Source: Streptococcus sanguinis (lineage in GTDB: Bacteria > Bacillota > Bacilli > Lactobacillales > Streptococcaceae). Taken from it: a DNA stretch of 64,000 bases. Below the pieces are notes generated by a model, which was not told the DNA's origin, did no database searches, and saw only the letters and a list, made by a program, of their open reading frames with translations. Both the position numbers and the translations under genes were made by a program. Positions 34,188-46,411 of the stretch are shown piece by piece. How positions within the stretch are numbered: the first letter of the stretch is position 1; every line of letters starts with the position of its first letter. The DNA is taken from contig CP040556.1 of the NCBI GenBank assembly GCA_013378335.1, positions 682,001 through 746,000 on the forward strand, read 5' to 3'.

Positions 34188-34873
34188 ATGCATAAGATTT
34201 TACTAGTAGAAGATGATCCAGTCATCCGCCAAATGATAAAAAAATGCTGGAACAATGGGGCTTTCAGGTAGTGGCAGTCGAGGACTTTATGGATGTGCTG
34301 ACTATCTTCGTCCGAGAGGAGCCGCATCTGGTGCTGATGGATATCGGCTTGCCCTTGTTTAACGGCTATCATTGGTGTCAGGAAATCCGCAAGATTTCAA
34401 CAGTGCCCATCATGTTTTTGTCTTCCCGCGATCAGTCCATGGACATTGTCATGGCTATCAATATGGGGGCAGATGACTATGTGACCAAGCCTTTTGACAA
34501 CAATGTCTTTCTGGCTAAGGTTCAGGGCTTGCTGCGCCGTTCCTATGAGTTCGGAAACGACCAGAGTCTCCTAGAGCACCAAGGTGTCATTCTCAATCTT
34601 AAGTCGACAGATCTGGTTTTTGATGGGAAAGTGGTGACCTTGACCAAGAACGAATTTCAGATTTTGCGGGTTCTCTTCGAGCATTCGGATGGTATTGTGG
34701 CACGTGATGATCTGATGAAGGAACTCTGGAACAGCGACTTTTTCATCGATGACAATACCCTATCAGTCAATGTCGCTCGCCTGCGTAAAAAGCTTGAAGA
34801 GCACGGACTGAAGAATTTCATCGAAACCAAAAAAGGAATAGGATACGGTCTCATCAATGGACACACAGGATAA
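34188..34873 (+). CDS. bceR: OmpR-family response regulator (BceR-like), frame broken once
   Basis: The start MHKILLVEDDPVIRQMIKK lies at ATG 34188 after AGGAGGGAAAG. The frame breaks in an A7 run (34238-34244); one more A gives KKMLEQWGFQVV and joins the long frame. The receiver domain has the acidic pair EDD, phospho-acceptor Asp in VLMDIGLPLF and Lys in VTKPFD. The C-terminal winged helix follows (about 130-228). The restored protein has 228 residues. It overlaps the BceS-like kinase by 17 bases and probably controls the five operators described here. Confidence 0.9.
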
Positions 34874-35837
34874 ATTTTTCTTTTTTAAGTCTTACCTTTA
34901 TTCGCGGCGATTTTTTCTAGCTCTGCTGATTCTGCTGCTAGGCTTTATTCTGCTCTTTGCCTTTGTCTTTGATGATTACCGCAGTCTGCTGGAATATGTC
35001 GCGCTCTTGTTAGCTCTTTTGTCTTTCTTGTTTATCGGAGCAGATGCTTGGACGTCCTTTAAGGGCTATCGCAGCCAGAAGCTGCAGGTCGCTGCTCAGG
35101 CTCAGACTCCTCTAGAAAAGCTCTTGCAGGAAAGAGTGGAGGAGCTGGAGTACGAACAGAAGAATCAGCTCTTGGTTGAGCAGGAGAAATACAATGATTT
35201 GCTGGACTACTATACTCTTTGGGTTCATCAAGTCAAGACACCCATTGCTGCCAGTTCACTTTTGATTGGAGATTTGAAGGATAAGGAAGCCAAGTCTCAG
35301 TTGGAGCAGGAACTCTTCAAGATTGAATCCTATGTTCATCTGGTGCTCCAGTACCTCCGTCTGGAAAGCTTCCATGACGATCTAGTTCTGAAGCAGGAAA
35401 ATTTGGCTGATTTGGTCAGGGAAATTGTCAAGAAATATGCTCTTTTCTTTATTCAGCAAGGACTCAGCCTCAATCTTCATGACCTAGACCACACGATTGT
35501 CACTGATAAAAAGTGGTTTGTAGTGATTTTGGAGCAGGTCCTGTCCAATAGTCTTAAATACACCAAAGAAGGCAGCATAGAGATTTATTTTCAAGAGGGC
35601 AGTCTCTACATCAAGGACACAGGTCTGGGCATTCAAAATGCTGATTTGCTGCGGGTTTTTGAGCGCGGTTTCTCAGGCTACAACGGTCGTCTGACCCAGC
35701 AGTCATCAGGCTTAGGTCTTTACCTGTCCAAGAAAATTGCTGACCAGCTGGGACACAAGATTGCTATAGACTCTCAAGTTGGTCAGGGAACGACGGTTTC
35801 CATCGCCTTTCCTGAGAAGAAATTGATCTTTGAGTAG
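34857..35837 (+). CDS. bceS: Intramembrane-sensing histidine kinase (BceS-like)
   Basis: A 326-residue kinase with two N-terminal transmembrane helices (about 18-36 and 42-60) and almost no extracellular loop, which is the hallmark of BceS-type kinases that sense through a BceAB transporter. The phospho-His lies in LWVHQVKTPIAAS, the N box in LEQVLSNSLKYTKEG, and the ATP lid in IKDTGLGIQN and SSGLGLYLSKKIA. It is co-translated with the response regulator. Confidence 0.93.
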   Translation: MDTQDKFFFFKSYLYSRRFFLALLILLLGFILLFAFVFDDYRSLLEYVALLLALLSFLFIGADAWTSFKGYRSQKLQVAAQAQTPLEKLLQERVEELEYEQKNQLLVEQEKYNDLLDYYTLWVHQVKTPIAASSLLIGDLKDKEAKSQLEQELFKIESYVHLVLQYLRLESFHDDLVLKQENLADLVREIVKKYALFFIQQGLSLNLHDLDHTIVTDKKWFVVILEQVLSNSLKYTKEGSIEIYFQEGSLYIKDTGLGIQNADLLRVFERGFSGYNGRLTQQSSGLGLYLSKKIADQLGHKIAIDSQVGQGTTVSIAFPEKKLIFE

Positions 35838-35848
35838 GAGGAAGAAAG

Positions 35849-36229
35849 TTGTTAGTAGTGGTTTATGATAGTCTGACTGGTTTGGGCAAAAAGTTTGCTA
35901 AAAGTCTGGGAATGCCTAGCCAGTCAGTCTGGAAAAAGCTGGAGGAACCCTGTATTTTAGTCAGCAGAAATAGCGGAGCAGGGCAGATTCCGTGGACGAC
36001 CAAGCGCTTCATCAGAAAGTACAGACATCTAATCAAAGGCTTTGTCATCAATGGCAATCAGAAGCGTTATCCGCGGACCTTTTGCGGGGCAACGGATAAG
36101 ATAGTGGAGCAGTATGGCCTCCGCCACATTCGTAATATTGAGGGCTCTGGAACGGAAGCAGACAGACAAGCAGTCAAAGCCTTTTTAGAACAGTTGCAGA
36201 CAGCTGAAAGTGTGCATAAAAGCCACTAG
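35849..36229 (+). CDS. NrdI-like flavodoxin
   Basis: A 126-residue flavodoxin-fold protein resembling NrdI, the protein that activates the manganese cofactor of class Ib ribonucleotide reductase: VYDSLTGLGKKFA near the start and GFVINGNQKRYPRTFCGATDKI later. The start is TTG 35849 after AGGAGGAAGAAAG. It follows the kinase gene by 11 bases and is apparently in the same operon. No nrdEF genes are in this window, so its partner is unclear. Confidence 0.8.
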   Translation: MLVVVYDSLTGLGKKFAKSLGMPSQSVWKKLEEPCILVSRNSGAGQIPWTTKRFIRKYRHLIKGFVINGNQKRYPRTFCGATDKIVEQYGLRHIRNIEGSGTEADRQAVKAFLEQLQTAESVHKSH

Positions 36230-36274: not shown

Positions 36275-36288
36275 TGACAAAATTGTAA
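36275..36288 (+). promoter_or_regulatory. BceR-type operator A, before the TraX-like gene
   Basis: TGACAAAATTGTAA fits TKACA-N4-TGTAA. Downstream are ATGAAAG, GTTATGG and, 20 bases after TTATGG, the -10-like TATCAT (36343-36348). This spacing is shared by all five sites in the region. Confidence 0.72.
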
Positions 36289-36305
36289 GAATAAAACTAG
36301 CAAAT

Positions 36306-36340
36306 GAAAGGTTAGGTTATGGTACCAGCCTTTCTTTTTT
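36306..36340 (+). terminator. Terminator of the bceRS-NrdI unit, overlapping promoter A
   Basis: GAAAGGTT (36306-36313) pairs with AGCCTTTC (36327-36334), followed by TTTTTT. It lies inside the promoter region of the TraX-like gene. Confidence 0.7.
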
Positions 36341-36378
36341 ATTATCATAGAGTCAAGAAATAAGAAGGAGACAGAAAA

Positions 36379-37134
36379 ATGAAATCAAAAGGTATAAATG
36401 CTTTTCAGTTGAAGCTCTTCATGGCATTTCTTATGGTTTTTGACCATATCAGTCAGATACCGGGGCTGGTGCCGGACGACTGGGATGGCGTCTTGCATGC
36501 CCTAACCCGCTGTGTCGGAGTAGCATTTGCCTTCATGGCAGTGGAAGGTTTTCTCCACACTCGCAACCGCCTGGCTTACAATATGAGGCTCTTCTTTTGG
36601 GCAGCCCTGATGCAGACAGGAAACTGTATCCTGACGCTCCTCTTTCAGGAGAAGGGCATTTACCTCACTCACAATATCTTCCTGACCTTGGCCTGCGGTG
36701 TCCTCATGCTGAGTCTTTTCTTTGGCTTTTCTGACAATGGCGGAGCTACTAAGGATGGGAAGCGTGGTTTGCGGCTGACAGCAGGAGTATTAGTCTTGCT
36801 GGCTGGGCTTCTCTTTAGCGAAGGCGGCATGGCTCTGCTTCCTTTCATGCTCTTGACCTACCTTTTTAGAAATCAAGTCTTTTTCAGAAACTTGTCCTAT
36901 GTAGTTTGGGCGGGAATTCTCTTTGCCATGAGTATTCAAATTTATCCAACCTTGCAGGACACTCTTTCTATGTTGCTCTATAATTCAGACTGGCTCTTTA
37001 TCACTGTTCTTCCTCTCTTGCACTTCTACAATGGTGAGCGAGGATCTAGCAGCAAATGGAGCAAATATTTCTTCTATATATTCTATCCAGCCCACCTTTG
37101 GCTAATTGCCTTGATCGCCTTTTGGGTAAAATAA
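36379..37134 (+). CDS. TraX-family membrane protein
   Basis: A 251-residue polytopic protein with about seven hydrophobic segments. The pattern NAFQLKLFMAFLMVFDHISQ at the N-terminus and FYIFYPAHLWLI at the C-terminus fits the TraX family (PF05857), named after the pilin acetylase of F-type plasmids but common on Gram-positive chromosomes. An acyl- or acetyltransferase role on envelope components is possible. Its promoter carries BceR-type operator A, which suggests a part in the cell-wall antibiotic response. Confidence 0.82.
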   Translation: MKSKGINAFQLKLFMAFLMVFDHISQIPGLVPDDWDGVLHALTRCVGVAFAFMAVEGFLHTRNRLAYNMRLFFWAALMQTGNCILTLLFQEKGIYLTHNIFLTLACGVLMLSLFFGFSDNGGATKDGKRGLRLTAGVLVLLAGLLFSEGGMALLPFMLLTYLFRNQVFFRNLSYVVWAGILFAMSIQIYPTLQDTLSMLLYNSDWLFITVLPLLHFYNGERGSSSKWSKYFFYIFYPAHLWLIALIAFWVK

Positions 37135-37147
37135 AGCTCATCTCATC

Positions 37148-37161
37148 TTACAAAAGTGTAA
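37148..37161 (+). promoter_or_regulatory. BceR-type operator B, before bceAB1
   Basis: TTACAAAAGTGTAA is a near-perfect inverted repeat fitting TKACA-N4-TGTAA. It is followed by AAAATGTAAG, GTTATGG and, 20 bases further, TAGAAT as a -10 candidate. Confidence 0.78.
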
Positions 37162-37303
37162 GATTGCACTTTAAAATGTAAGCTTAGGTTATGGCTGAGC
37201 GATTGGAATTGAGATAGAATAGAATTATCAATTAGGAAGCAGTTTATAAATACTGCTAAAAGCAGGGCGTTGATAGGTGCCTGCTAAACAGAAAGGAAAC
37301 AAG

Positions 37304-38083
37304 ATGACATTATTAGACGTACAGCACGTGAAAAAAATTTATAAAACCCGCTTTCAGGGCAGCCAAGTAGAGGCCTTGAAAGACATTCACTTTACAGTAG
37401 AAAAAGGCGAATATGTCGCCATCATGGGGGAGTCGGGCTCTGGGAAATCCACCCTGCTCAACATCTTAGCTATGCTGGACAAGCCGACTGAGGGCCGCGT
37501 CTTTCTCAACGGAACTGACACGGCAACCATCAAAAACAGCCAGGCTTCCAGCTTCCGCCGGGAGAAATTAGGCTTTGTCTTTCAGGATTTCAACCTGCTG
37601 GATACCCTGTCAGTCAAGGATAATATTCTCCTGCCTCTGGTCCTCTCTCGCCGTCCCATTACCGAAATGATGCAAAAGCTGGTTACGACCTGCAATGAGC
37701 TGGGGATTAACAAACTCCAAGAGAAGTTTCCTTATGAGATTTCCGGTGGTCAGAAGCAGAGAGTTGCAGTGGCTCGGGCCATCATCACAGAACCTGAGAT
37801 TTTGCTGGCGGATGAGCCGACGGGAGCCTTGGATTCCAAGTCTTCAGCAGCCCTGCTGGATGTCTTTGACGATATCAATGCCCGCGGTCAAACTATTCTC
37901 ATGGTGACTCACTCAACATCAGCGGCTAGCCGCGCCAAGCGGGTGCTCTTTATCAAGGATGGGATTCTCTATAATCAAATCTTCCGCGGTGACAAGACCG
38001 AGCGGCAGATGTTCCAAGAGATTTCCGATACTCTGACAGTTATGGCAAGTGAGGTGGGCAATTATGTTCAAACTAACGAGTAA
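37304..38083 (+). CDS. bceA: Bacitracin-type ABC transporter ATPase BceA, copy 1
   Basis: A 259-residue ATPase with Walker A GESGSGKST, signature ISGGQKQRVA and Walker B LLADEPTGALDS. I chose ATG 37304 over an upstream GTG because GAAAGGAAAC precedes it and copy 2 starts the same way. It differs from copy 2 by only a few residues (Lys/Arg near 33, Glu/Asp in ITEPE, Ser/Ala in STSAAS) and in the last residues. With BceB it forms a peptide-antibiotic detoxification and sensing module. It overlaps its permease gene by 20 bases. Confidence 0.94.
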   Translation: MTLLDVQHVKKIYKTRFQGSQVEALKDIHFTVEKGEYVAIMGESGSGKSTLLNILAMLDKPTEGRVFLNGTDTATIKNSQASSFRREKLGFVFQDFNLLDTLSVKDNILLPLVLSRRPITEMMQKLVTTCNELGINKLQEKFPYEISGGQKQRVAVARAIITEPEILLADEPTGALDSKSSAALLDVFDDINARGQTILMVTHSTSAASRAKRVLFIKDGILYNQIFRGDKTERQMFQEISDTLTVMASEVGNYVQTNE

Positions 38084-39976
38084 ACTAGCTTTGTCCAATC
38101 TGGTTAAAAATCGCAGTTTGTATTATCCATTTGCTTTTGCGACGGTACTGGCAACAGCGATTTTGTATAGTTTTGTCTCACTGGCTCATAGCCCTAATAT
38201 GGAGAGCTCTTATGGTGGTACAGCAGCTCGCATGACCTTGCAGTTTGGTATCTATGTCATTCAGATTGCCGTCCTTATCCTCATCACCTATGCTAATAGC
38301 TTCGTTATGAAGAACCGCTCCCGAGAGTTGGGAGTCTATAGTTTGCTGGGCATGGAGAAAAAGCATCTGCTAGTCATGACCTTCTTTGAACTCTGTGTCT
38401 TTTATCTAGCTACAGTTGGTCTGGGTATCTTGTCTGGCCTAGCTTTAGATAAAATGCTCTACGCAGTCCTTTTGAAATTGATGGGAATGCCGGCAGTTCT
38501 TGCCTCGACCTTCCAATGGCAGAATGTCTGGATGACTCTAGCTAGTCTGGGTGTCGCTTTTGCGGTGATTTTGTTGCTCAACTCTACGCGTCTTCTACGC
38601 TATAGCTCTCTTAATCTAATGAAAGAAAAGAAAGCTGGTGAGAAGAAGGGACGCTTCCTTTTTCTGCAGACCTTGCTGGGGCTCCTGCTCATGAGTGTAG
38701 CTTATTACATGGCTTTGACCGTTACCAAACCTGTCGCTGCTATCGGCAATTTCTTTATAGCTGTGATCATGGTTATCCTAGCAACTTATCTGCTTTTTAA
38801 TGCAGGTTCGATTACACTATTGCAATTTCTCAAAAAGCGCAAAGGCTACTACTACAAAACGCAGAATTTCATTTCTGTTTCCAATCTCATCTCGCGGATG
38901 CGCAAAAATGCAGCAGGATTGGCAACTATCTCCATTCTATCTACTATGCTCTTAGTGACTCTGGTTGGTACAATCAATATCTATGTTGGGGGTCAGGATT
39001 ATATTACTACCTTGCATCCGAAGGATTATAATGTCAGCATCGTCTTGCCGAAATCGACTGATCAGAAGGAGGCTCTGTTGGCCAAGGTCCAGCAAGTCGC
39101 TCAGGACACTGGTCTGAGGAAGCCAAGCTATACTAACTATCTCTACCAATCAGCCTTCATCATGAAATTAGCTGGTAATGATGTGACAGTTCCAATGCAA
39201 AGCGAGCTGGAGTCGGATACAAGTATCTTGACCAAGTCTGTAGGCACGATTACAGTCATCAATCGTCAGGATTATGAAAAAATGACAGGGGAAAAGATAG
39301 ACTTGGCAGACGATGAAACTCTTGTCTATGGGAAAAATATTTCCTTAAATAAGGACAAGCCTCTCCGAGTAAATGGTAAGGACTGGAAGATTAAGCAGCT
39401 TTTATCGTCGAATTTCACGCATGGGGAAATCCCTAATCCAAACGATGTGGCCATGGAACAGGGTCTCTATATGGTGGTCAATGATAGCAAAGAGGTTAAT
39501 CTTGATGTGGATCATTACTACTACATTGGAGTTACTTCAGAGACTAAGGACAGTAAAAGTTTGTCGAGCAAGTCCAGCTGGGGTTGAGGGACACTTTGGA
39601 TCAGGAACAAGCACAAGATGGTAGCTTCGCAATGGCTAGTGACCGTTACAGCGCAGAAAAGAGCTATCAAGAACTTACTGGAACTTTGCTCTTCATCGGT
39701 GTCTTCCTCTCCGTTATCTTCCTCCTAGGAGCTGTTCTCGTGATTTACTACAAGCAAATCTCTGAAGGCTATGAAGACCGTGATGGCTTTATTATCTTAC
39801 AAAAAGTTGGTTTAGATGAAAAGCAGACTAGAAGTACCATTCGCAAGCAGATCTTGACTGTTTTCTTCCTACCTCTCATCTTTGCTTTTCTACATGTAGC
39901 AGCAGTCTTAACTACCAAACCCCAATCGCTAAGCGAATCAGCTCTTAACAAAAAACACTTTATAAATTTTGTATAG
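38064..39976 (+). pseudogene. BceB-type permease, copy 1: frameshifted and 3'-truncated
   Basis: Begins MFKLTSKLALSNLVKNRSLY at ATG 38064 and shows the FtsX-like permease plan with ten helices expected and a large extracellular loop (about residues 315-530). A frameshift at G4 39580-39583 separates it from the downstream half; five G residues would join SSWG to LRDTL. Independently the C-terminus is lost: similarity to copy 2 stops at FAFLHVA (about 39900), leaving off about 65 residues with the last helices. A 20-bp IS1182-type end lies just beyond, pointing to an insertion/deletion event. The truncation is real even if the frameshift is an error. Confidence 0.85.
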
Positions 39977-39993
39977 AAAAGTGTTGCCTTTTC

Positions 39994-40013
39994 AGGACTT
40001 TGTCTTCAGTCTG
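39994..40013 (-). mobile_element. Solo IS1182-type element end
   Basis: AGGACTTTGTCTTCAGTCTG matches the right boundary of IS1182 copy 1 (1084-1103) with one substitution, and it ends directly at a terminator hairpin as the two full copies do. No transposase sequence remains beside it. It sits where the first permease gene is cut short. Confidence 0.68.
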
Positions 40014-40040
40014 AAAACCGGAAACAAATTCCGGTTTTTT
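40014..40040 (+). terminator. Terminator behind the truncated permease
   Basis: AAAACCGGAA pairs with TTCCGGTTTT, followed by T residues. Confidence 0.88.
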
Positions 40041-40128
40041 ATGCTCTTGATGAAAGAAGCCGATATACATCGGTGAATTTATGGCTATTGACGCGGTTTA
40101 AGGGCAATCGAAAACTATTTTTTCTAAG

Positions 40129-40142
40129 TGACAAAAATGTAA
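40129..40142 (+). promoter_or_regulatory. BceR-type operator C, before the 43-residue peptide gene
   Basis: TGACAAAAATGTAA fits the shared motif. It is followed by AAAATGAAAG, CTTATGG and, 20 bases further, TATCCT as a weak -10 candidate. Confidence 0.7.
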
Positions 40143-40270
40143 GTTTAAAGGCTAAAATGAAAGGTTATCTTATGGCAGCTAGCTTGGGAATTCGGTATCC
40201 TATAAGTGTAAAGAAAAAGAAGATAACTATCTTCCAAACTAAAAATCAGATTTCAAGAAGGAGGCCCACT

Positions 40271-40402
40271 ATGAAAATCAATCTTTTTAACCATCGCCAA
40301 AGTAAACCTAAAGCTCAAAAGATTTCCAAGGAAGAAATCGAGAAGACTCGCCTAGGCTGTGCTTCCAGTCAATATTATTTCTGGCTGCAGTACAGTCACT
40401 GA
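40271..40402 (+). CDS. Small peptide of 43 residues under a BceR-type promoter
   Basis: The reading frame begins at ATG 40271, six bases after a strong AAGGAGG (40258-40264), and reads MKINLFNHRQSKPKAQKISK, ending in aromatic FWLQYSH. The first two thirds are basic and hydrophilic; the end is hydrophobic and contains one Cys. No signal peptide or family is recognised. It is preceded by operator C and followed by a long hairpin (40418-40456), so it forms its own transcription unit between the two bceAB pairs. The RBS and promoter argue for translation. A remnant of a longer gene is the alternative. Confidence 0.55.
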   Translation: MKINLFNHRQSKPKAQKISKEEIEKTRLGCASSQYYFWLQYSH

Positions 40403-40417
40403 GAGATTCCAGTATTC

Positions 40418-40456
40418 AAGGATAAGAGAAAGGTCAGTTGACTTTTCTCTTTATCC
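40418..40456 (+). other. Long hairpin after the small peptide gene
   Basis: GGATAAGAGAAAGGTCA pairs with TGACTTTTCTCTTTATCC with a single bulged base. There is no T tract, so it may stabilise or process the transcript rather than end it. Confidence 0.65.
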
Positions 40457-40472
40457 GACTTGGAGCACAAGA

Positions 40473-40486
40473 TGACAAAAATGTAA
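40473..40486 (+). promoter_or_regulatory. BceR-type operator D, before bceAB2
   Basis: TGACAAAAATGTAA, then AAAATGAAAG, GTTATGG and, 20 bases further, TATGAT (40540-40545) as the -10 box. Confidence 0.78.
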
Positions 40487-40580
40487 GATTGGCGGGCAAA
40501 ATGAAAGATTAGGTTATGGAAACTTGTCTGTCTTTCCGGTATGATAGTAGTATCAAGTTAAATAAAGAAGAGGTTCGAGT

Positions 40581-41342
40581 ATGACATTATTAGACGTACA
40601 ACACGTGAAAAAGATTTATAAAACCCGCTTTCAGGGTAGTCAAGTAGAGGCACTGAAGGACATTCACTTTACGGTAGAAAGAGGCGAATATGTCGCCATC
40701 ATGGGGGAGTCAGGCTCCGGGAAATCCACCCTGCTCAACATCTTAGCCATGTTGGACAAGCCGACTGAGGGCCGTGTCTTTCTCAACGGAACTGACACAG
40801 CAACCATCAAAAACAGCCAGGCTTCCAGCTTCCGTCGGGAAAAATTAGGCTTTGTCTTTCAGGACTTCAATCTGTTGGATACCCTGTCGGTCAAGGATAA
40901 TATTCTCCTGCCTCTGGTTCTCTCTCGCCGTCCCATTACCGAAATGATGCAAAAGCTGGTTACGACCTGCAATGAGCTGGGGATTAACAAGCTGCAAGAG
41001 AAGTTTCCTTATGAGATTTCCGGTGGCCAGAAGCAGCGGGTTGCAGTGGCTCGGGCCATCATCACAGACCCTGAGATTCTGCTGGCGGATGAGCCGACGG
41101 GAGCCTTGGATTCCAAGTCTTCAGCAGCCCTGCTGGATGTTTTTGATGACATCAATGCCCGCGGTCAAACTATTCTCATGGTGACTCACTCAACAGCAGC
41201 GGCTAGCCGCGCCAAGCGGGTGCTCTTTATCAAGGATGGGATTCTCTACAACCAAATCTTCCGTGGCGACAAGACCGAGCGGCAGATGTTTCAAGAGATT
41301 TCTGATACTCTGACAGTTATGGCAAGTGAGGTGAAGGACTAG
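40581..41342 (+). CDS. bceA: Bacitracin-type ABC transporter ATPase BceA, copy 2
   Basis: A 253-residue ATPase nearly identical to copy 1 in protein and DNA, with Walker A GESGSGKST, signature ISGGQKQR and Walker B LLADEPTGALD. It ends at TAG 41340-41342, the last G of which starts the permease GTG codon, so translation is coupled. This copy has an intact permease and is likely the working transporter. Confidence 0.95.
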   Translation: MTLLDVQHVKKIYKTRFQGSQVEALKDIHFTVERGEYVAIMGESGSGKSTLLNILAMLDKPTEGRVFLNGTDTATIKNSQASSFRREKLGFVFQDFNLLDTLSVKDNILLPLVLSRRPITEMMQKLVTTCNELGINKLQEKFPYEISGGQKQRVAVARAIITDPEILLADEPTGALDSKSSAALLDVFDDINARGQTILMVTHSTAAASRAKRVLFIKDGILYNQIFRGDKTERQMFQEISDTLTVMASEVKD

Positions 41343-43330
41343 TGTTTCGATTAGCAGCAAAATTGGCGGTATCCAATCTGATTAAGAACCGCCGCCTCTA
41401 TTATCCTTTTGCACTGGCTACCTGTGTGGCTGTAGCCATTTCTTATATTTTCAACTCCTTGGCTTTTAATCCCAATCTATCCAAAATGTCAGGTGCCAGC
41501 TCTGTTATTTTCGTTTTGGTCCTAGGGGTCGTTATTGTGAACATCACAGCTGGAATTATTGTCTTTTATGCCAATCAATTTGTCATGAAGAATCGTTCCA
41601 AGGAGCTGGGGCTTTACGGCATGTTGGGGCTCAATAAACGCCATCTCTTTGTTATGACCTTTATTGAGCTTCTGATTTTCGGGCTAGTGGCTGTAAGCTT
41701 GGGACTGACTATAGGTGTTCTCTTTGACCAGCTGATTTATGCTTTTTTGCTCAAGCTTATGGGGACCAAGGTAGTTTTGGTTTCAACATTTCAACCTTTT
41801 GTATTGGTATTGATTATCATTTTCTATGCTTTTGTATTTTTCTGTTTGCTAATTAAAAATGGCTTTTACTTAAGAAAGTTTGATGCTCTGCAATTAGTCA
41901 AGGAAAAAAATAGTGGGGAGAAAAAGAGTCGCTTTTTACTCTTGCAAACTATTATTGGTATATCTTCTCTCGTTTTTGGATATTATCTTGCTTTAGGTGT
42001 ATCTGATCCGGTGGCAGCCATAATCATTTTCTTCGTAGCCGTACTTTTTGTTATTCTAGGGACTTATCTGCTTTTCAATGCAGGAACAACTGTTTTCTTA
42101 CAATTTTTGAAAAAGAAGAAGACGTTTTATTATCAGCCTGATAACATGATTTCGGTATCTAATCTAATTTTTCGAATGAAGAAAAATGCAATCGGTTTAG
42201 CGACGATTTCTATTTTGTCGACAATGGTTTTGGTTACCTTATCTGGTGGAGCCAACATTTATGCTGGTGGTGATTATATGCAGAGTGCCATGTTTCCGCA
42301 TGATATCAGTATCCAAGGAAAAGAAGTAACAGGTGAGCTTCTGGAACAAGCTTTGACAGAGTTTGTTCAAGAGCAGCAACTGCAGGTTAATAAAAAAGTT
42401 GTTTACCGGTATTATACGATAGGGGTTAGCGGACGAGCTGGTAATCGGCTAGATATTTATTCTAAGGAACAGAAACCCTTCGTTCCAAATCTTTATATTT
42501 TGGCCATTTCTGAGAGTGATTACCAAGAAATGACAGGTCAAAGTCTTCAGCTTAAAGATGATGAAATAGCCATATTTGAGCAAGGATTGGAACTAGATAG
42601 CAAAAAAGATTTACAGATAGCTGGAAAAAATTTAAAAATCAAGAGAAAATTAAAAGAAGATTTCGTTTTCGGTAATCTACCCGATCCGATGAATATGATG
42701 GTGCCTGAAAGAATCTATATGGTGGCTAAAAATCCGAGTCAAATCTTTTCTTCATTGATGAACGATTACGCTGTCAATGTTAACTATTATGGGGGATTAA
42801 ATCTCAAGCTACCAAAAGAAGAACAGATAAACCTCAGAGAATCATACCAAGAAAAGCTAAGCAGTTTTAATGCCACTTTACCTGAAAATCAAGCTGTTTA
42901 TGGTTCGGTGACAGCCTTTGATAAGCAAGAAATAAAGGGAATGCTAGGCGGTATGTTCTTTATTGGAATTTTCCTATCAATCGTTTTTATGCTTGGAACC
43001 GTTCTTATTATCTACTACAAGCAGGTTTCTGAAGGTTATGAAGATCGAGAAGGCTTTGTTATTTTACAAAAGGTTGGATTGGATGAAAAACAAATTAAGC
43101 AAACAATTCGTAGGCAGATTTTGATTGTCTTCTTCCTACCCCTAATCTTTGCCTTCCTTCATTTGGCTTTTGCCTATCACATGCTCAGTCTCATTTTACA
43201 GATGTTGGGCGTGCTCAACGCAAGTCTTATGTTAGTGGTGACTCTAGGTGTCTGCGCTCTGTTTATTGCAGTATATGTTGGTGTCTTTCTCATTACTTCT
43301 CGCAGCTATCGCAAAATTGTGGCTATGTAA
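41342..43330 (+). CDS. bceB: Bacitracin-type ABC transporter permease BceB
   Basis: A 662-residue permease starting at GTG 41342 (VFRLAAKLAVSNLIKNRRLY). It has ten predicted helices in the BceB arrangement: one N-terminal, three around residues 50-160, two around 200-250, one near 285, a large extracellular domain (about 310-530) that should bind the antibiotic or its lipid target, and three at the end. It confers resistance to cell-wall-active peptides and signals to BceS. It is much more diverged from copy 1 than the two ATPases are from each other. Confidence 0.94.
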   Translation: MFRLAAKLAVSNLIKNRRLYYPFALATCVAVAISYIFNSLAFNPNLSKMSGASSVIFVLVLGVVIVNITAGIIVFYANQFVMKNRSKELGLYGMLGLNKRHLFVMTFIELLIFGLVAVSLGLTIGVLFDQLIYAFLLKLMGTKVVLVSTFQPFVLVLIIIFYAFVFFCLLIKNGFYLRKFDALQLVKEKNSGEKKSRFLLLQTIIGISSLVFGYYLALGVSDPVAAIIIFFVAVLFVILGTYLLFNAGTTVFLQFLKKKKTFYYQPDNMISVSNLIFRMKKNAIGLATISILSTMVLVTLSGGANIYAGGDYMQSAMFPHDISIQGKEVTGELLEQALTEFVQEQQLQVNKKVVYRYYTIGVSGRAGNRLDIYSKEQKPFVPNLYILAISESDYQEMTGQSLQLKDDEIAIFEQGLELDSKKDLQIAGKNLKIKRKLKEDFVFGNLPDPMNMMVPERIYMVAKNPSQIFSSLMNDYAVNVNYYGGLNLKLPKEEQINLRESYQEKLSSFNATLPENQAVYGSVTAFDKQEIKGMLGGMFFIGIFLSIVFMLGTVLIIYYKQVSEGYEDREGFVILQKVGLDEKQIKQTIRRQILIVFFLPLIFAFLHLAFAYHMLSLILQMLGVLNASLMLVVTLGVCALFIAVYVGVFLITSRSYRKIVAM

Positions 43331-43372
43331 TAGCAGAGACATTCATATACCTTTCATCTATTTTAAAGACTT

Positions 43373-43529
43373 AGGCTGAGACAAAAAGATTTTGATTTTA
43401 GGAATTCTTTATTATAAATTTTTAAAATCGATAGATTAGATAAAAAAAGCGAACAAAGCAGAATTCTGATTACCAGAAAACTAGTTTTGTTCGCTTTTTA
43501 TATTTGAGGTTGGACTTTTGTCCCAGCCT
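43373..43529. repeat. MITE-like palindromic element with an inner terminator
   Basis: The outer arms AGGCTGAGACAAAAAG (43373-43388) and CTTTTGTCCCAGCCT (43515-43529) are inverted and match at 14 of 15 positions. Inside, AAAAAAGCGAACAAA (43443-43457) pairs with TTTTGTTCGCTTTTT (43485-43499), a bidirectional terminator. The 157-bp unit has no coding content and resembles the 'GGCTGGGACAAAA' small intergenic repeats of streptococci. Confidence 0.75.
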
Positions 43530-43622
43530 CTTTCTTTTCTCGGAAAATTTCTGAGAAAGATTCCTAAAAGCGTGTAAATATGATAAAATAGAGCGTTAAT
43601 GCAATTAGGAGAGTAAAAATAG

Positions 43623-45021
43623 ATGAATATTTTTAGAAAAAAAGATGCCAGTAAGGATAGAACGGGCATGCGCCGTCACTTGAAACTTCCTGATTTGATT
43701 TTGCTTGGTATTGGAGCAATGGTAGGAACTGGAATTTTCACCATTACAGGAATCGGAGCGGCCAAATATGCCGGGCCTGCTCTGACCGTTTCGATTGTCA
43801 TTTCAGCCCTTTGTGTGAGTATTTCGGCCCTTTTTTACGCTGAGTTTGCCTCACGGATTCCGGCCAATGGCGGAGCCTATAGTTATATTTATGCGGTTCT
43901 GGGAGAATTTCCTGCTTGGCTGGCTGGTTGGCTGATCATCATGGAGTTCATGACAGCTATCTCAGGTGTTGCCTCTGGCTGGGGCTCTTATCTGAAGGGG
44001 CTGCTGAGTGGCTTTGGTATCCAGCTGCCGACAGCTCTGAATGGCACCTTCAATCCAAAAGCAGGTACTTACGTGGACTTGCTGCCTATTCTGGTTTTGG
44101 TCTTTGTTACAGGGGTTGTCCTTTTGAACTCAAAGGCAGCCCTGCGCTTCAACTCAGCCTTGGTGGTCTTGAAATTCTCAGCCTTGGCACTCTTTATCAT
44201 TGCAGGATTTTTCTTCATCAAACCTGAAAATTGGTCTAACTTTGCACCTTTTGGCTTCGGAGAAATTTATGGCGGTAAGGTCGGCATCATGGCCGGGGCT
44301 TCACTTATGTTCTTTGCCTTTCTGGGCTTTGAGTCCATTTCCATGGCGGTAGATGAAATCAAAGAGCCCCAAAAATGTTCCTCGCGGGATTGTCTTATCC
44401 TTGAGCATCGTGACCATTCTCTATATTTTGGTGACCTTGGTCTTGACTGGGATTGTCCACTATAGCAAGCTGGATGTCTCAGATGCGGTGGCCTTTGCCC
44501 TGCGCAGCGTCGGACTTGGATGGGCAGCTAACTATATCTCTGTTGTCGCTATTTTGACTCTGATTACTGTCTGCATCTCCATGACCTACGCCTTGTCGCG
44601 GATGATTTACAGTATTGCGCGTGATGGTCTCTTGCCTCGCTCTTTCAAAAAATTGACAGAGACCAGTCGGGTGCCAAAGAATGCAACAATTTTAGTAGGG
44701 ATTGCCTCAGCTGTTTGTGCCGGTATCTTCCCCTTGGCTAGTATCGCTTCTTTCCTCAATATCTGTACCTTGGCCTATCTGATTTTATTGGCACTCGCTG
44801 TCTTGAAATTGCGGAAAGATCAAGGAATGCCTAAAGCTGGAGAATTCAAAACACCTCTAGTACCTCTGACACCGATCTTGTCCATTATCATCTGCCTGTC
44901 CTTTATGACTCAATATACCAAGGAAACCTGGCAGGCCTTTGGCATTGCCCTAGCGCTGGGAAGTCTCATCTACGCCTTTTATGGCTATAGGAACTCAGAA
45001 ATATCTGTAAAAGAGAAGTAG
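43623..45021 (+). CDS. APC-family amino-acid permease, frame broken once
   Basis: The first frame (to 44465) holds helices 1-7, beginning with LPDLILLGIGAMVGTGIFTI (helix 1, substrate site) and including the FFAFLGFESISMAVDEIKEPQ segment. The second frame resumes at NVPRGIVLSLSIVTI and carries helices 8-12 to 45021. The break is in the A5 run 44371-44375: loss of two A (A7 giving PQKNVPRG) or gain of one would explain it. The rebuilt protein of about 466 residues is normal for the family, probably a cationic or branched amino-acid transporter; the substrate is unknown. Confidence 0.85.
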
Positions 45022-45064
45022 GGATAGAGTATTGCTATTAAAAAGAAAGTAAAAGGAGAAAATA

Positions 45065-45334
45065 ATGAAGAACCTTAAGCTAACCCAAAAGAAGAAAATC
45101 TGGCTCTTTGCCCTTGCTTTTATCGCCCTAATTTTACTGGCGATTGTGATCAATATTCAGCTGAACCAGCCTGAAGATATGCATGCTGAGTATGTTCGGC
45201 TTTGGAAGACAACTTGGCATGAGGAAAATAAAGATTGGCTCTACCCACTGAAAAATATCTGTCTTGTTATTCTGGCAGTTCTGGCAGGGTCTGGTTTGAT
45301 GATTGCATTCTCCAAGAGTGAGAGATGGAAATAA
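45065..45334 (+). CDS. Small membrane protein of unknown function
   Basis: An 89-residue protein with two hydrophobic helices (about 12-32 and 62-80) joined by a charged loop containing MHAEYVRLWKTTWHEENKDW. The AAAGGAGAAA site is well placed. It follows the amino-acid permease by 43 bases and may be co-transcribed. No family is recognised. Confidence 0.65.
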   Translation: MKNLKLTQKKKIWLFALAFIALILLAIVINIQLNQPEDMHAEYVRLWKTTWHEENKDWLYPLKNICLVILAVLAGSGLMIAFSKSERWK

Positions 45335-45356
45335 GCTTCTGTAGATTAAAATAATC

Positions 45357-45370
45357 TTACAAAAATGTAA
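45357..45370 (+). promoter_or_regulatory. BceR-type operator E, before the S41 protease gene
   Basis: TTACAAAAATGTAA is a perfect TTACA-N4-TGTAA. It is followed by AAATGTAAGG, ACATGG and, 20 bases further, TATAAT (45425-45430), the best -10 box of the five. Confidence 0.8.
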
Positions 45371-45466
45371 GATTGACGATGATAAATGTAAGGTAGAGAC
45401 ATGGAAAACGTGTCTCTATTTTGCTATAATCGGCTCAGAAATCCTCACAAGAAAGGTTGTGCAATT

Positions 45467-46411
45467 ATGAAAAAAGTCCTTTTAGGTTGCTTAGGGACAG
45501 TACTGGTTTTGCTTGCTCTTTTAATAGGTTTTCTGGCTTACTTTGGTCCGGACTATGGCATTTTTCTTTTCCCACCTAGTCCGCAGGACTACGCTCGCTC
45601 GGTTGTGAAAAAGCTTGATTTCGGTCTTTATACGGACAAAAATTGGGAAAATGAGAAGAAGAAAGCTTTAGAGAAGCTTGAATCTGCCAATACTTATCAA
45701 GACACCTATCCCGTTTTGGAAAAATTAACCAAAGAGGCTGGCGGGAAGCATTCTTATTTTTTAAGTCCACAGGATAATCCCGAAAATAGTCCAGAAAGCA
45801 AAAATCAGCCTGAAGTGCAGAATCGAGAGGGAGTTCTCTATTTAAAAGTTCCTGCTTTCACTGGTGATGCACAGGCAGCGAAAGCTTATGCCAACAAACT
45901 TTCAGCAGCTCTTAAAAAGGATGACTATCAGGCGGTTCTTGTGGATTTGAGAGACAATACCGGCGGGAATATGTATCCGATGATTGCTGGACTGTCCTCT
46001 CTTTTGCCTGATGAAGACCTCTTCCAATTCGTTTATAAAAATGGAAGTAAGAGCCCGGTTTCTCGGTCAGATATTCTTAAGCAGCTTGGTCTGGAGCAGA
46101 CTGATGAGAAAGCAAAGAAAGTGCCAATAGCTGTCCTTACCAATGGGAAGACAGGTAGCTCAGGAGAGATGACTGTTTTAGCTTTTAAGGGACTGGAAAA
46201 CGTTAAAATATTTAGTCAGCCAACGGCAAGCTATACTACGGGAAATAATTATTATCAACTATATGATGGAGCGGTTTTGCTCTTGACTACCTCGAGTATC
46301 CTAGATCGCACGGGCAAGCTTTATGAGAATGAGGCCATTCAGCCCGATGTCCTAACAGACCAGCCTTTAAAAGAGGCGGAGCCTTGGTTGAAGGGACAGA
46401 TGGGAGAATAG
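45467..46411 (+). CDS. S41-family serine protease, membrane anchored
   Basis: A 314-residue protein. An N-terminal hydrophobic segment (about residues 3-27) follows MKK, giving a signal anchor, and a C-terminal S41 (tail-specific protease-like) domain contains VLVDLRDNTGGNMYPMIAG and the catalytic Ser region NGKTGSSGEMTVLAF. There is no PDZ domain. I chose ATG 45467, after GAAAGG, because the TATAAT box lies inside the longer frame. The BceR-type operator suggests a role in defence against antimicrobial peptides, perhaps by degrading them; inferred only. Confidence 0.83.
   Translation: MKKVLLGCLGTVLVLLALLIGFLAYFGPDYGIFLFPPSPQDYARSVVKKLDFGLYTDKNWENEKKKALEKLESANTYQDTYPVLEKLTKEAGGKHSYFLSPQDNPENSPESKNQPEVQNREGVLYLKVPAFTGDAQAAKAYANKLSAALKKDDYQAVLVDLRDNTGGNMYPMIAGLSSLLPDEDLFQFVYKNGSKSPVSRSDILKQLGLEQTDEKAKKVPIAVLTNGKTGSSGEMTVLAFKGLENVKIFSQPTASYTTGNNYYQLYDGAVLLLTTSSILDRTGKLYENEAIQPDVLTDQPLKEAEPWLKGQMGE

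What the first reader, a model, noticed from the sequence alone, without database searches (positions are those of the whole stretch)
36275..45430. Five promoters sharing a BceR-type operator define a local regulon
TKACA-N4-TGTAA occurs at 36275, 37148, 40129, 40473 and 45357, in front of a TraX-like gene, bceAB1, a 43-residue peptide, bceAB2 and an S41 protease. All five sites have the same downstream layout: ATGWAAG, then TATGG or CATGG, then exactly 20 bases to a -10-like box. The response regulator and kinase genes lie just upstream. This links a TraX-like membrane protein, a protease and a small peptide to the cell-wall antibiotic response.
Basis: partly seen in the sequence, partly recalled or inferred. 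Interest (0 to 1): 0.78.

Follow-up and report, generated by a model that had tools for sequence, protein, structure and literature searches.

The report
Streptococcal antibiotic-peptide defence regulon with six promoters
Five near-identical switch sequences in a mouth streptococcus, and a sixth elsewhere in its chromosome, very probably let one antibiotic-sensing regulator turn on a set of defence genes together, including a membrane protein and a tiny peptide not linked to it before, and the sixth switch points backwards through an unrelated gene.

Summary
All five TKACA-N4-TGTAA sites are where stated, each with a second half-site (AAATGWAAG, two helical turns on), TATGG/CATGG and 20 bases to the -10. 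The extended motif occurs exactly six times in the 2.35-Mb genome: these five and one outside the window. The core operator is the published BceR-type consensus. Comparison adds support: 108 of 112 sites fetched from 40 motif-bearing Streptococcus genomes precede bceAB, TraX, the small peptide, NSR or macAB; in reverse, 29 of 30 TraX loci checked and 15 of 16 NSR loci carry the operator upstream. The "S41 protease" is an NSR homologue, a known Bce partner; I found no paper linking TraX or the peptide to this response. The sixth promoter lies at the 3' end of glutathione reductase (gor) and fires antisense through it towards macAB, 1.66 kb away, also in S. gordonii, cristatus, sinensis, australis and others. 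In 19 other genomes the palindrome alone sits directly before macA; none of 75 regions has both. This excludon-type layout is unproven; macA also has its own -10. In this assembly the regulator gene and bceB1 are interrupted. Binding and transcripts remain untested.

The parts
34188..34873 (+). BceR-type response regulator gene (OmpR family), reading frame interrupted near its start in this assembly; the open part from 34244 codes for 209 aa
   Evidence: Pfam Response_reg and Trans_reg_C; best solved relatives 5dcm/5dcl, 160 bits, which I identify from memory as S. agalactiae NsrR; relative G035 has an open 238-aa gene, comparison
34857..35837 (+). BceS-type sensor kinase, 326 aa, apparently intramembrane-sensing (two N-terminal hydrophobic stretches)
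   Evidence: HATPase_c; layout read by eye; type by recall
36275..36348 (+). Promoter 1 (TraX): palindrome 36275-36288, half-site 36302-36310, TATGG 36318-36322, -10 36343-36348
36379..37134 (+). TraX-family membrane protein, 251 aa
   Evidence: PF05857, 56.3 bits against a cut-off of 25
37148..37220 (+). Promoter 2 (bceAB1): palindrome 37148-37161, half-site 37174-37182, TATGG 37190-37194, -10 37215-37220
37304..38083 (+). bceA1, ABC transporter ATPase
   Evidence: PF00005 and TIGR03608
38049..39976 (+). bceB1, permease, broken: two open pieces (38049-39587, 39584-39976) and a lost 3' end; open copies exist in relatives
40129..40201 (+). Promoter 3 (small peptide): palindrome 40129-40142, half-site 40155-40163, TATGG 40171-40175, -10 40196-40201
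   Evidence: half-site counted
40271..40402 (+). 43-residue peptide with a C-terminus conserved across lineages (YYFWLQYSH)
40473..40545 (+). Promoter 4 (bceAB2): palindrome 40473-40486, half-site 40499-40507, TATGG 40515-40519, -10 40540-40545
   Evidence: half-site counted
40581..41342 (+). bceA2, ABC transporter ATPase
   Evidence: open frame, used as the BceA reference; same protein type as BceA1, whose family was scanned
41342..43330 (+). bceB2, intact BceB-type permease, 662 aa
   Evidence: FtsX; PsdB 9ugg 3.8e-41, BceB 7tcg 3e-34
45357..45430 (+). Promoter 5 (NSR): palindrome 45357-45370, half-site 45384-45392, CATGG 45400-45404, -10 45425-45430
   Evidence: half-site counted
45467..46411 (+). 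NSR-like S41 protease (nisin-resistance protein homologue), 314 aa from this start; the mechanical ORF starts at 45401
   Evidence: 4y68 'Putative nisin-resistance protein' 1.7e-62; PF03572

Best explanation
The five sites, and a sixth at genome position C1:824293, are BceR-type operator-promoters that form one Bce peptide-antibiotic response regulon. A BceAB transporter and the intramembrane-sensing kinase detect attack on the lipid II cycle. The phosphorylated regulator binds the palindrome, centred roughly 73 bases before the start of transcription, together with a second half-site two helical turns downstream, and recruits RNA polymerase to promoters that have a -10 but a poor -35 (TATGG in its place). 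The targets are two bceAB operons, an NSR protease, a TraX-family membrane protein, a conserved 43-residue peptide and, through the sixth promoter, antisense transcription across gor towards macAB. Shown here by sequence: the sites, the layout, the genome-wide count, the recurrence upstream of the same gene kinds, and the gene identities. Inferred: binding by this regulator, the direction of the effect, induction by lipid II-binding peptides, read-through to macAB.
For: Six exact extended motifs in 2.35 Mb. 108 of 112 sites in the 40 motif-bearing genomes I fetched precede bceAB, TraX, the peptide, NSR or macAB. TraX matches in 55 of 147 genomes; of the 30 best loci, which are all I checked, 29 carry the core 77-121 nt upstream. 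NSR matches in 16 of 147; 15 of 16 carry it. 46 shuffled upstream stretches peak at a core score of 1.7. The regulator is closest to 5dcm/5dcl. TNACA-N4-TGTAA is the published consensus, and the pneumococcal regulator was tested on the bceAB promoter (PMC9020739, passages). The S. agalactiae BceRS regulon includes an S41 protease (PMC11502775, passages).
Against: No binding or transcript data for this species were seen. The regulator frame and bceB1 are interrupted in this assembly. The 40 genomes were chosen because they hold the motif, and the PWM was trained on sites from several of the lineages later tested; 9 of the 30 TraX loci and 9 of the 16 NSR loci are near-identical S. sanguinis-type copies. 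In pneumococcus most genes changed by RR01 did not co-occur with TCS01 across streptococci (PMC11034029, passages), so regulons differ between species.
Confidence: 0.85

Rival explanations
1. The sites belong to a different OmpR-type regulator encoded elsewhere in the genome, and the neighbouring BceRS-like genes are decayed bystanders.
For: The adjacent regulator gene is interrupted in this assembly while all five operators are intact. The simple palindrome also occurs at places near the contig ends without the second block.
Against: Relative G035, with the same promoters, has an open regulator gene next to them. The core matches the published BceR-type consensus (PMC9020739). The downstream genes include Bce-type genes. 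The breaks in these genes sit at or near homopolymers, which fits sequencing error.
Confidence: 0.1
2. For the sixth site: it makes only a short RNA, or serves only to interfere with gor, and macAB is driven by its own local promoter.
For: A -10-like box lies directly upstream of macA in the nine aligned sequences that have the gor-side site, in eight of them with the TG of an extended -10 (by eye). A hairpin lies just downstream of the expected start (sequences); in L044 it scores as a terminator on the gor strand.
Against: 19 other gor-macA regions have the palindrome directly before macA and none of 75 has both, so the operator goes with macAB. In the macA direction the scan finds no terminator in 5 of 6 loci and one weak one in the sixth, though shuffles give only 1.1-1.7 on both strands together. 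Rho is not found over the cut-off. The MacA match starts at 1657-1680 from the site in 19 of 19 named loci where it could be measured, of 23.
Confidence: 0.45
3. The shared sequences are copies left by recent duplication of one bceAB promoter region and carry no regulatory meaning for TraX and NSR.
For: bceA1 and bceA2 regions are 93-95% identical in DNA between the two loci, so local copying does occur.
Against: Outside the conserved blocks the five promoters align poorly, and the operator is kept upstream of TraX at 53-69% protein identity and of NSR at 37-52%.
Confidence: 0.04

Closest known systems
BceRS-BceAB modules (B. subtilis BceRSAB; S. pneumoniae TCS01-BceAB; S. mutans BceABRS/MbrABCD)
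   Same: Regulator, kinase, BceAB type and operator TNACA-N4-TGTAA / TTACAA-N2-TTGTAA (PMC9020739 and PMC11034029, passages).
   Different: Two bceAB operons under one operator type; extra members TraX, the peptide, NSR and gor/macAB; a second half-site and near-fixed spacing in all six promoters. A main plus secondary site in B. subtilis is recalled from memory, not from a call.
S. agalactiae NsrRK/BceRS regulon (nsr operon; BceP S41 protease)
   Same: Regulator closest to 5dcm/5dcl (NsrR by recall), protease closest to 4y68; an S41 protease in the BceR regulon (PMC11502775, passages).
   Different: Here the protease has its own promoter 2 kb beyond bceAB2; the word TraX does not occur in that paper's main text.
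Pneumococcal MacAB-like pump Spr0693-0695 / SP0785-0787
   Same: The permease L020:7826-9091 matches 5xu1 over its whole length, 2.8e-166. The operon is induced by bacitracin and LL-37 (review PMC5985334, passage).
Excludons (Listeria and others; review PMC4374534, passages)
   Same: A promoter whose predicted transcript is antisense to one gene and leads into a divergent operon.
   Different: Not shown at RNA level here; macA also has a local -10.

Membership tests
Bce-type (BceRS-BceAB) module | OmpR-type regulator close to BceR/NsrR | tested here: met
   Response_reg and Trans_reg_C; 5dcm/5dcl best, 160 bits; the gene is interrupted in this assembly
Bce-type (BceRS-BceAB) module | Intramembrane-sensing kinase without an extracellular sensor domain | tested here: inconclusive
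   326 aa, only HATPase_c found by Pfam; the short N-terminal hairpin read by eye
Bce-type (BceRS-BceAB) module | ABC transporter with a BceB-type permease | tested here: met
   BceB2 matches PsdB and BceB; BceB1 is broken
Bce-type (BceRS-BceAB) module | TNACA-N4-TGTAA operator upstream of bceA | tested here: met
   37148 and 40473
Bce-type (BceRS-BceAB) module | Induction by lipid II-cycle antibiotics through the transporter | not testable with these tools
   needs RNA or reporter data
NSR nisin-resistance proteins | S41 family and sequence closest to SaNSR | tested here: met
   4y68 1.7e-62; the only other solved chain matched is 1.2e-4
NSR nisin-resistance proteins | Cleaves nisin | not testable with these tools
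   biochemical assay needed
Excludon (sixth promoter) | Promoter placed to transcribe antisense to gor towards a divergent operon | tested here: met
   (placement only; promoter activity not shown)
Excludon (sixth promoter) | One transcript spans antisense gor and macAB and lowers gor expression | not testable with these tools
   needs RNA-seq or RT-PCR; the terminator scans and the lack of a Rho match over the cut-off only permit it

The most novel reading that the evidence does not exclude
In the sanguinis, gordonii, cristatus and australis lineages the Bce operator for the MacAB peptide exporter sits on the far side of glutathione reductase, so that each alarm produces a long antisense leader across gor into macAB. 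Defence is switched on and gor is shut down in one act, while the same regulator drives a dedicated TraX-family membrane protein and a small peptide with an invariant YYFWLQYSH tail as new parts of the Bce response.
Probability: 0.4. Interest if true: 0.72.

Novelty: new variant of a known kind. Interest (0 to 1): 0.55.

Why it matters
Bce modules are a main line of defence of Gram-positive bacteria against bacitracin, lantibiotics and host peptides, but their streptococcal regulons are only partly mapped. A promoter architecture that predicts members from sequence brings a TraX-family protein (operator at 29 of 30 loci checked) and a conserved peptide into the response, and gives a directly testable case of an antisense, excludon-type link between peptide defence and glutathione metabolism.

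Tried and rejected
Considered and dropped: (1) chance repeats: rejected. (2) A generic S41 (CtpA-type) protease: the NCBIfam CTP models score far below their cut-offs, while NSR 4y68 matches at 1.7e-62. (3) A regulon confined to the window: rejected by the sixth site. (4) The other TKACA-N4-TGTAA sites among the 30 strand hits as members: none appears, which allow 3 mismatches over both blocks, so I left them out. (5) The small peptide as a known family: no Pfam or NCBIfam match. (6) The sixth promoter as a conserved small RNA: the bases after its -10 differ between lineages apart from a hairpin (by eye). (7) S. suis SstFEG or S. agalactiae BceCDE as MacAB homologues: not established, so not used. 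(8) TraX in the bacitracin and peptide literature: no paper; 0 TraX occurrences in the 20 listed of 43 papers.
Full report
Observation. The five sites are present at the stated coordinates and are far beyond chance (8 strand hits, 0.13 expected, 0 of 100 shuffles reach 8). The promoters align in three blocks: TKACA-N4-TGTAAG; AAATGWAAG after 11 or 12 bases, so that the half-sites TGTAAG and TGWAAG are 20 or 21 bp (two helical turns) apart; and TATGG (CATGG at NSR) exactly 20 bases before the -10. For promoters 3-5 the half-site coordinates are counted, because the expression caught the first block. TATGG lies where a -35 would be and is a poor -35, as expected of an activator-dependent promoter (inference). 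A two-block PWM from 40 sites that exclude the gor type, but include orthologous promoters of relatives, gives the five sites 53.6-59.1; apart from one- or two-base offsets the next best place in the window scores 1.5, and 30 shuffled windows peak at 10.2.

Genome-wide. The window is part of a 2.35-Mb genome. The extended motif has six exact matches, five here and one at C1:824293; three more hits carry 3 mismatches, and the reversed control pattern hits once in each of the two calls. With TATNNT as -10 added, 4 of the 6 are found, since two -10 boxes read TAGAAT and TAAAAT. The species is most likely Streptococcus sanguinis: eight close relatives in the genus sample share all six sites, and named S. 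sanguinis records carry the sixth.

Genes. Pfam gives Response_reg/Trans_reg_C, HATPase_c, TraX, ABC_tran, FtsX permease and Peptidase_S41. The S41 protein matches the solved nisin-resistance protein 4y68 at 1.7e-62. The regulator's best solved relatives are 5dcm/5dcl, which I recall as S. agalactiae NsrR. BceB2 matches PsdB and BceB. The 43-residue peptide has no Pfam or NCBIfam family and 23 hits at E up to 1 among 5.8 billion proteins, 21 of them below 1e-5; the two whose source name is shown are streptococcal hypothetical proteins. Its N-terminus varies between lineages, while the last nine residues YYFWLQYSH are invariant in the 14 aligned forms, six of which are S. sanguinis-type.

Recurrence in the genus. 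A pattern of the right half of the palindrome plus the second block occurs in 59 of 147 genomes; the match list was cut, and the reversed control pattern hit in 2 of 147. I fetched sites from 40 genomes. Of 112 distinct sites, 41 precede bceA, 20 TraX, 18 the peptide, 15 gor/macAB, 10 NSR, 2 bceB and 2 macA on the same side, and 4 have no labelled gene. Of those 4, one has no left half and looks like chance, one runs off its locus, and two are extra sites in G047 and G056. By eye 6 of the 112 depart from TKACA in the left half. Because these genomes were chosen for the motif, I tested the reverse. TraX matches in 55 of 147 genomes. Of the 30 best loci, the only ones checked, 29 have a core score of at least 19.6 at 77-121 nt upstream, 28 have a composite score of at least 28, and L216 has neither. 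NSR matches in 16 of 147; 15 of 16 have a core score of at least 13.7 upstream, 14 of them within 120 nt and the weakest (L236) at -235; L241, a partial match, has none. 46 shuffled upstream stretches peak at 1.7. Nine loci of each set are near-identical S. sanguinis-type copies, and part of the PWM training set came from the same lineages; the TraX sites of L205-L211 do not match the training pattern. A second, more distant TraX type (L051, PF05857 at 1.4e-35) also carries the site.

The sixth promoter. It has the whole layout, including 20 bases from TATGG to TAAAAT. It lies between two convergent genes, a putative cyclase and gor (Pfam), so its transcript can only run antisense into gor; macA, macB-ATPase and macB-permease follow on the far side. 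The permease matches the pneumococcal MacAB-like pump 5xu1. A scan of the genome-contig collection (84,980 species) for the motif beside a gor 3' end returned 23 loci, all Streptococcus: sanguinis, cristatus, sinensis, gordonii, australis, rubneri, xiaochunlingii and unnamed species. The pattern is tied to one gor end sequence and a limited distance, so it does not exclude other carriers. In 19 of the 23 the held DNA reaches MacA, whose match starts 1657-1680 bases from the site; in the other 4 it does not reach that far.

Two positions of one operator. I scanned 75 gor-macA regions, 15 of which had been fetched because they hold the gor-side site; the other 60 were chosen from the remaining divergent pairs, not all of them. 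16 have a strong core (23 or more) on the gor 3' side and 3 a weak one (15-16, without the second block); 19 have a core directly before macA; none has both; 37 have neither in the scanned stretches, one of these (L058) because its site lies beyond the 330-nt flank. The 19 sites before macA are the palindrome without a matching second block, so their promoter layout differs. Either position ties the operator to macAB, and the gor-side position is the unusual one. In the macA direction the terminator scan finds nothing in L020, L044, L050, L072 and L084 and one weak 5-bp stem in L057, where shuffles give 1.1-1.7 on both strands together, so this absence is permissive rather than strong. No Rho match reaches the cut-off (best 40 bits against 509). 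Against a simple read-through model, a -10-like box lies directly upstream of macA in the nine aligned sequences, in eight with the TG of an extended -10 (by eye), so macAB need not depend on the far promoter. I give the excludon reading about 0.4.

State of this strain. The regulator frame is interrupted near its start (open in G035; comparison; the difference is seen against several relatives). bceB1 is split into two frames and has lost its 3' end, and the amino-acid permease at 43623-45021 is split. Seven of eight relatives have 17-20 kb between promoters 2 and 3 where this genome has 3 kb; in the eighth, G132, the two lie on different contigs. bceB1 similarity stops at 39909 and resumes near 40012. 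Over 47-51 kb compared with each of three relatives, frame-changing differences inside genes are few and mostly single bases, those in the three genes above at or near homopolymers, so the small breaks may be sequencing errors; the large loss is structural.

Literature. TNACA-N4-TGTAA is cited as the consensus for BceAB-linked regulators, and the pneumococcal regulator was tested on the bceAB promoter (PMC9020739, passages). The S. mutans motif and the pneumococcal RR01 targets are in PMC11034029 (passages). The S. agalactiae BceRS regulon of nine genes includes an S41 protease (PMC11502775, passages). Bacitracin-induced S. mutans genes are listed in PMC7609970 (passage). Pneumococcal macAB induction by bacitracin and LL-37 is in PMC5985334 (passage). 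Excludons are described in PMC4374534 (passages). I found no paper that links TraX to this response (searches returned none; 0 TraX occurrences in the 20 listed of 43), and no title or abstract start on antisense transcription of gor towards macAB in the 20 listed of 395 and of 59. The peptide has no name to search by, so its absence from print was not searched. These searches cover open-licence papers only.

Noticed in passing
window 39909-40012: Edge of a loss of roughly 14-17 kb relative to relatives, which truncates bceB1; about 100 bases of other sequence lie at the junction.
   Followed up: partly
window 34188-34873: Response regulator reading frame interrupted near its start; open in relative G035.
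   Followed up: partly
window 43623-45021: Amino-acid permease gene split into two overlapping frames.
   Followed up: partly
window 37304-38083 and 40581-41342; L021-L037: The BceA proteins of both loci are 98-100% identical to BceA2 of the window in the S. sanguinis-type relatives, while BceB1 is only 45-46% identical to BceB2, which suggests gene conversion between the ATPase genes.
   Followed up: no
window 35849-36229: NrdI-like flavodoxin gene between the kinase and TraX; a similar gene lies in the stretch lost from this strain (L021:14331-14687, by eye).
   Followed up: no
L088, L055: An extra extended site in one S. sanguinis-like genome (G047) and in G056; in G056 (S. gordonii, judged by equal contig length) PrsW-family intramembrane protease pieces follow downstream.
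   Followed up: partly
G000:C1:3777, 6616, 2321451, 2324844: Palindromes TTACA-N4-TGTAA clustered near the contig ends without the second block; another regulator or chance.
   Followed up: no
L133-L142: Related genomes have a GTTACAAA/TTTGTAAC-like palindrome beside gor without the second block; meaning unknown.
   Followed up: no
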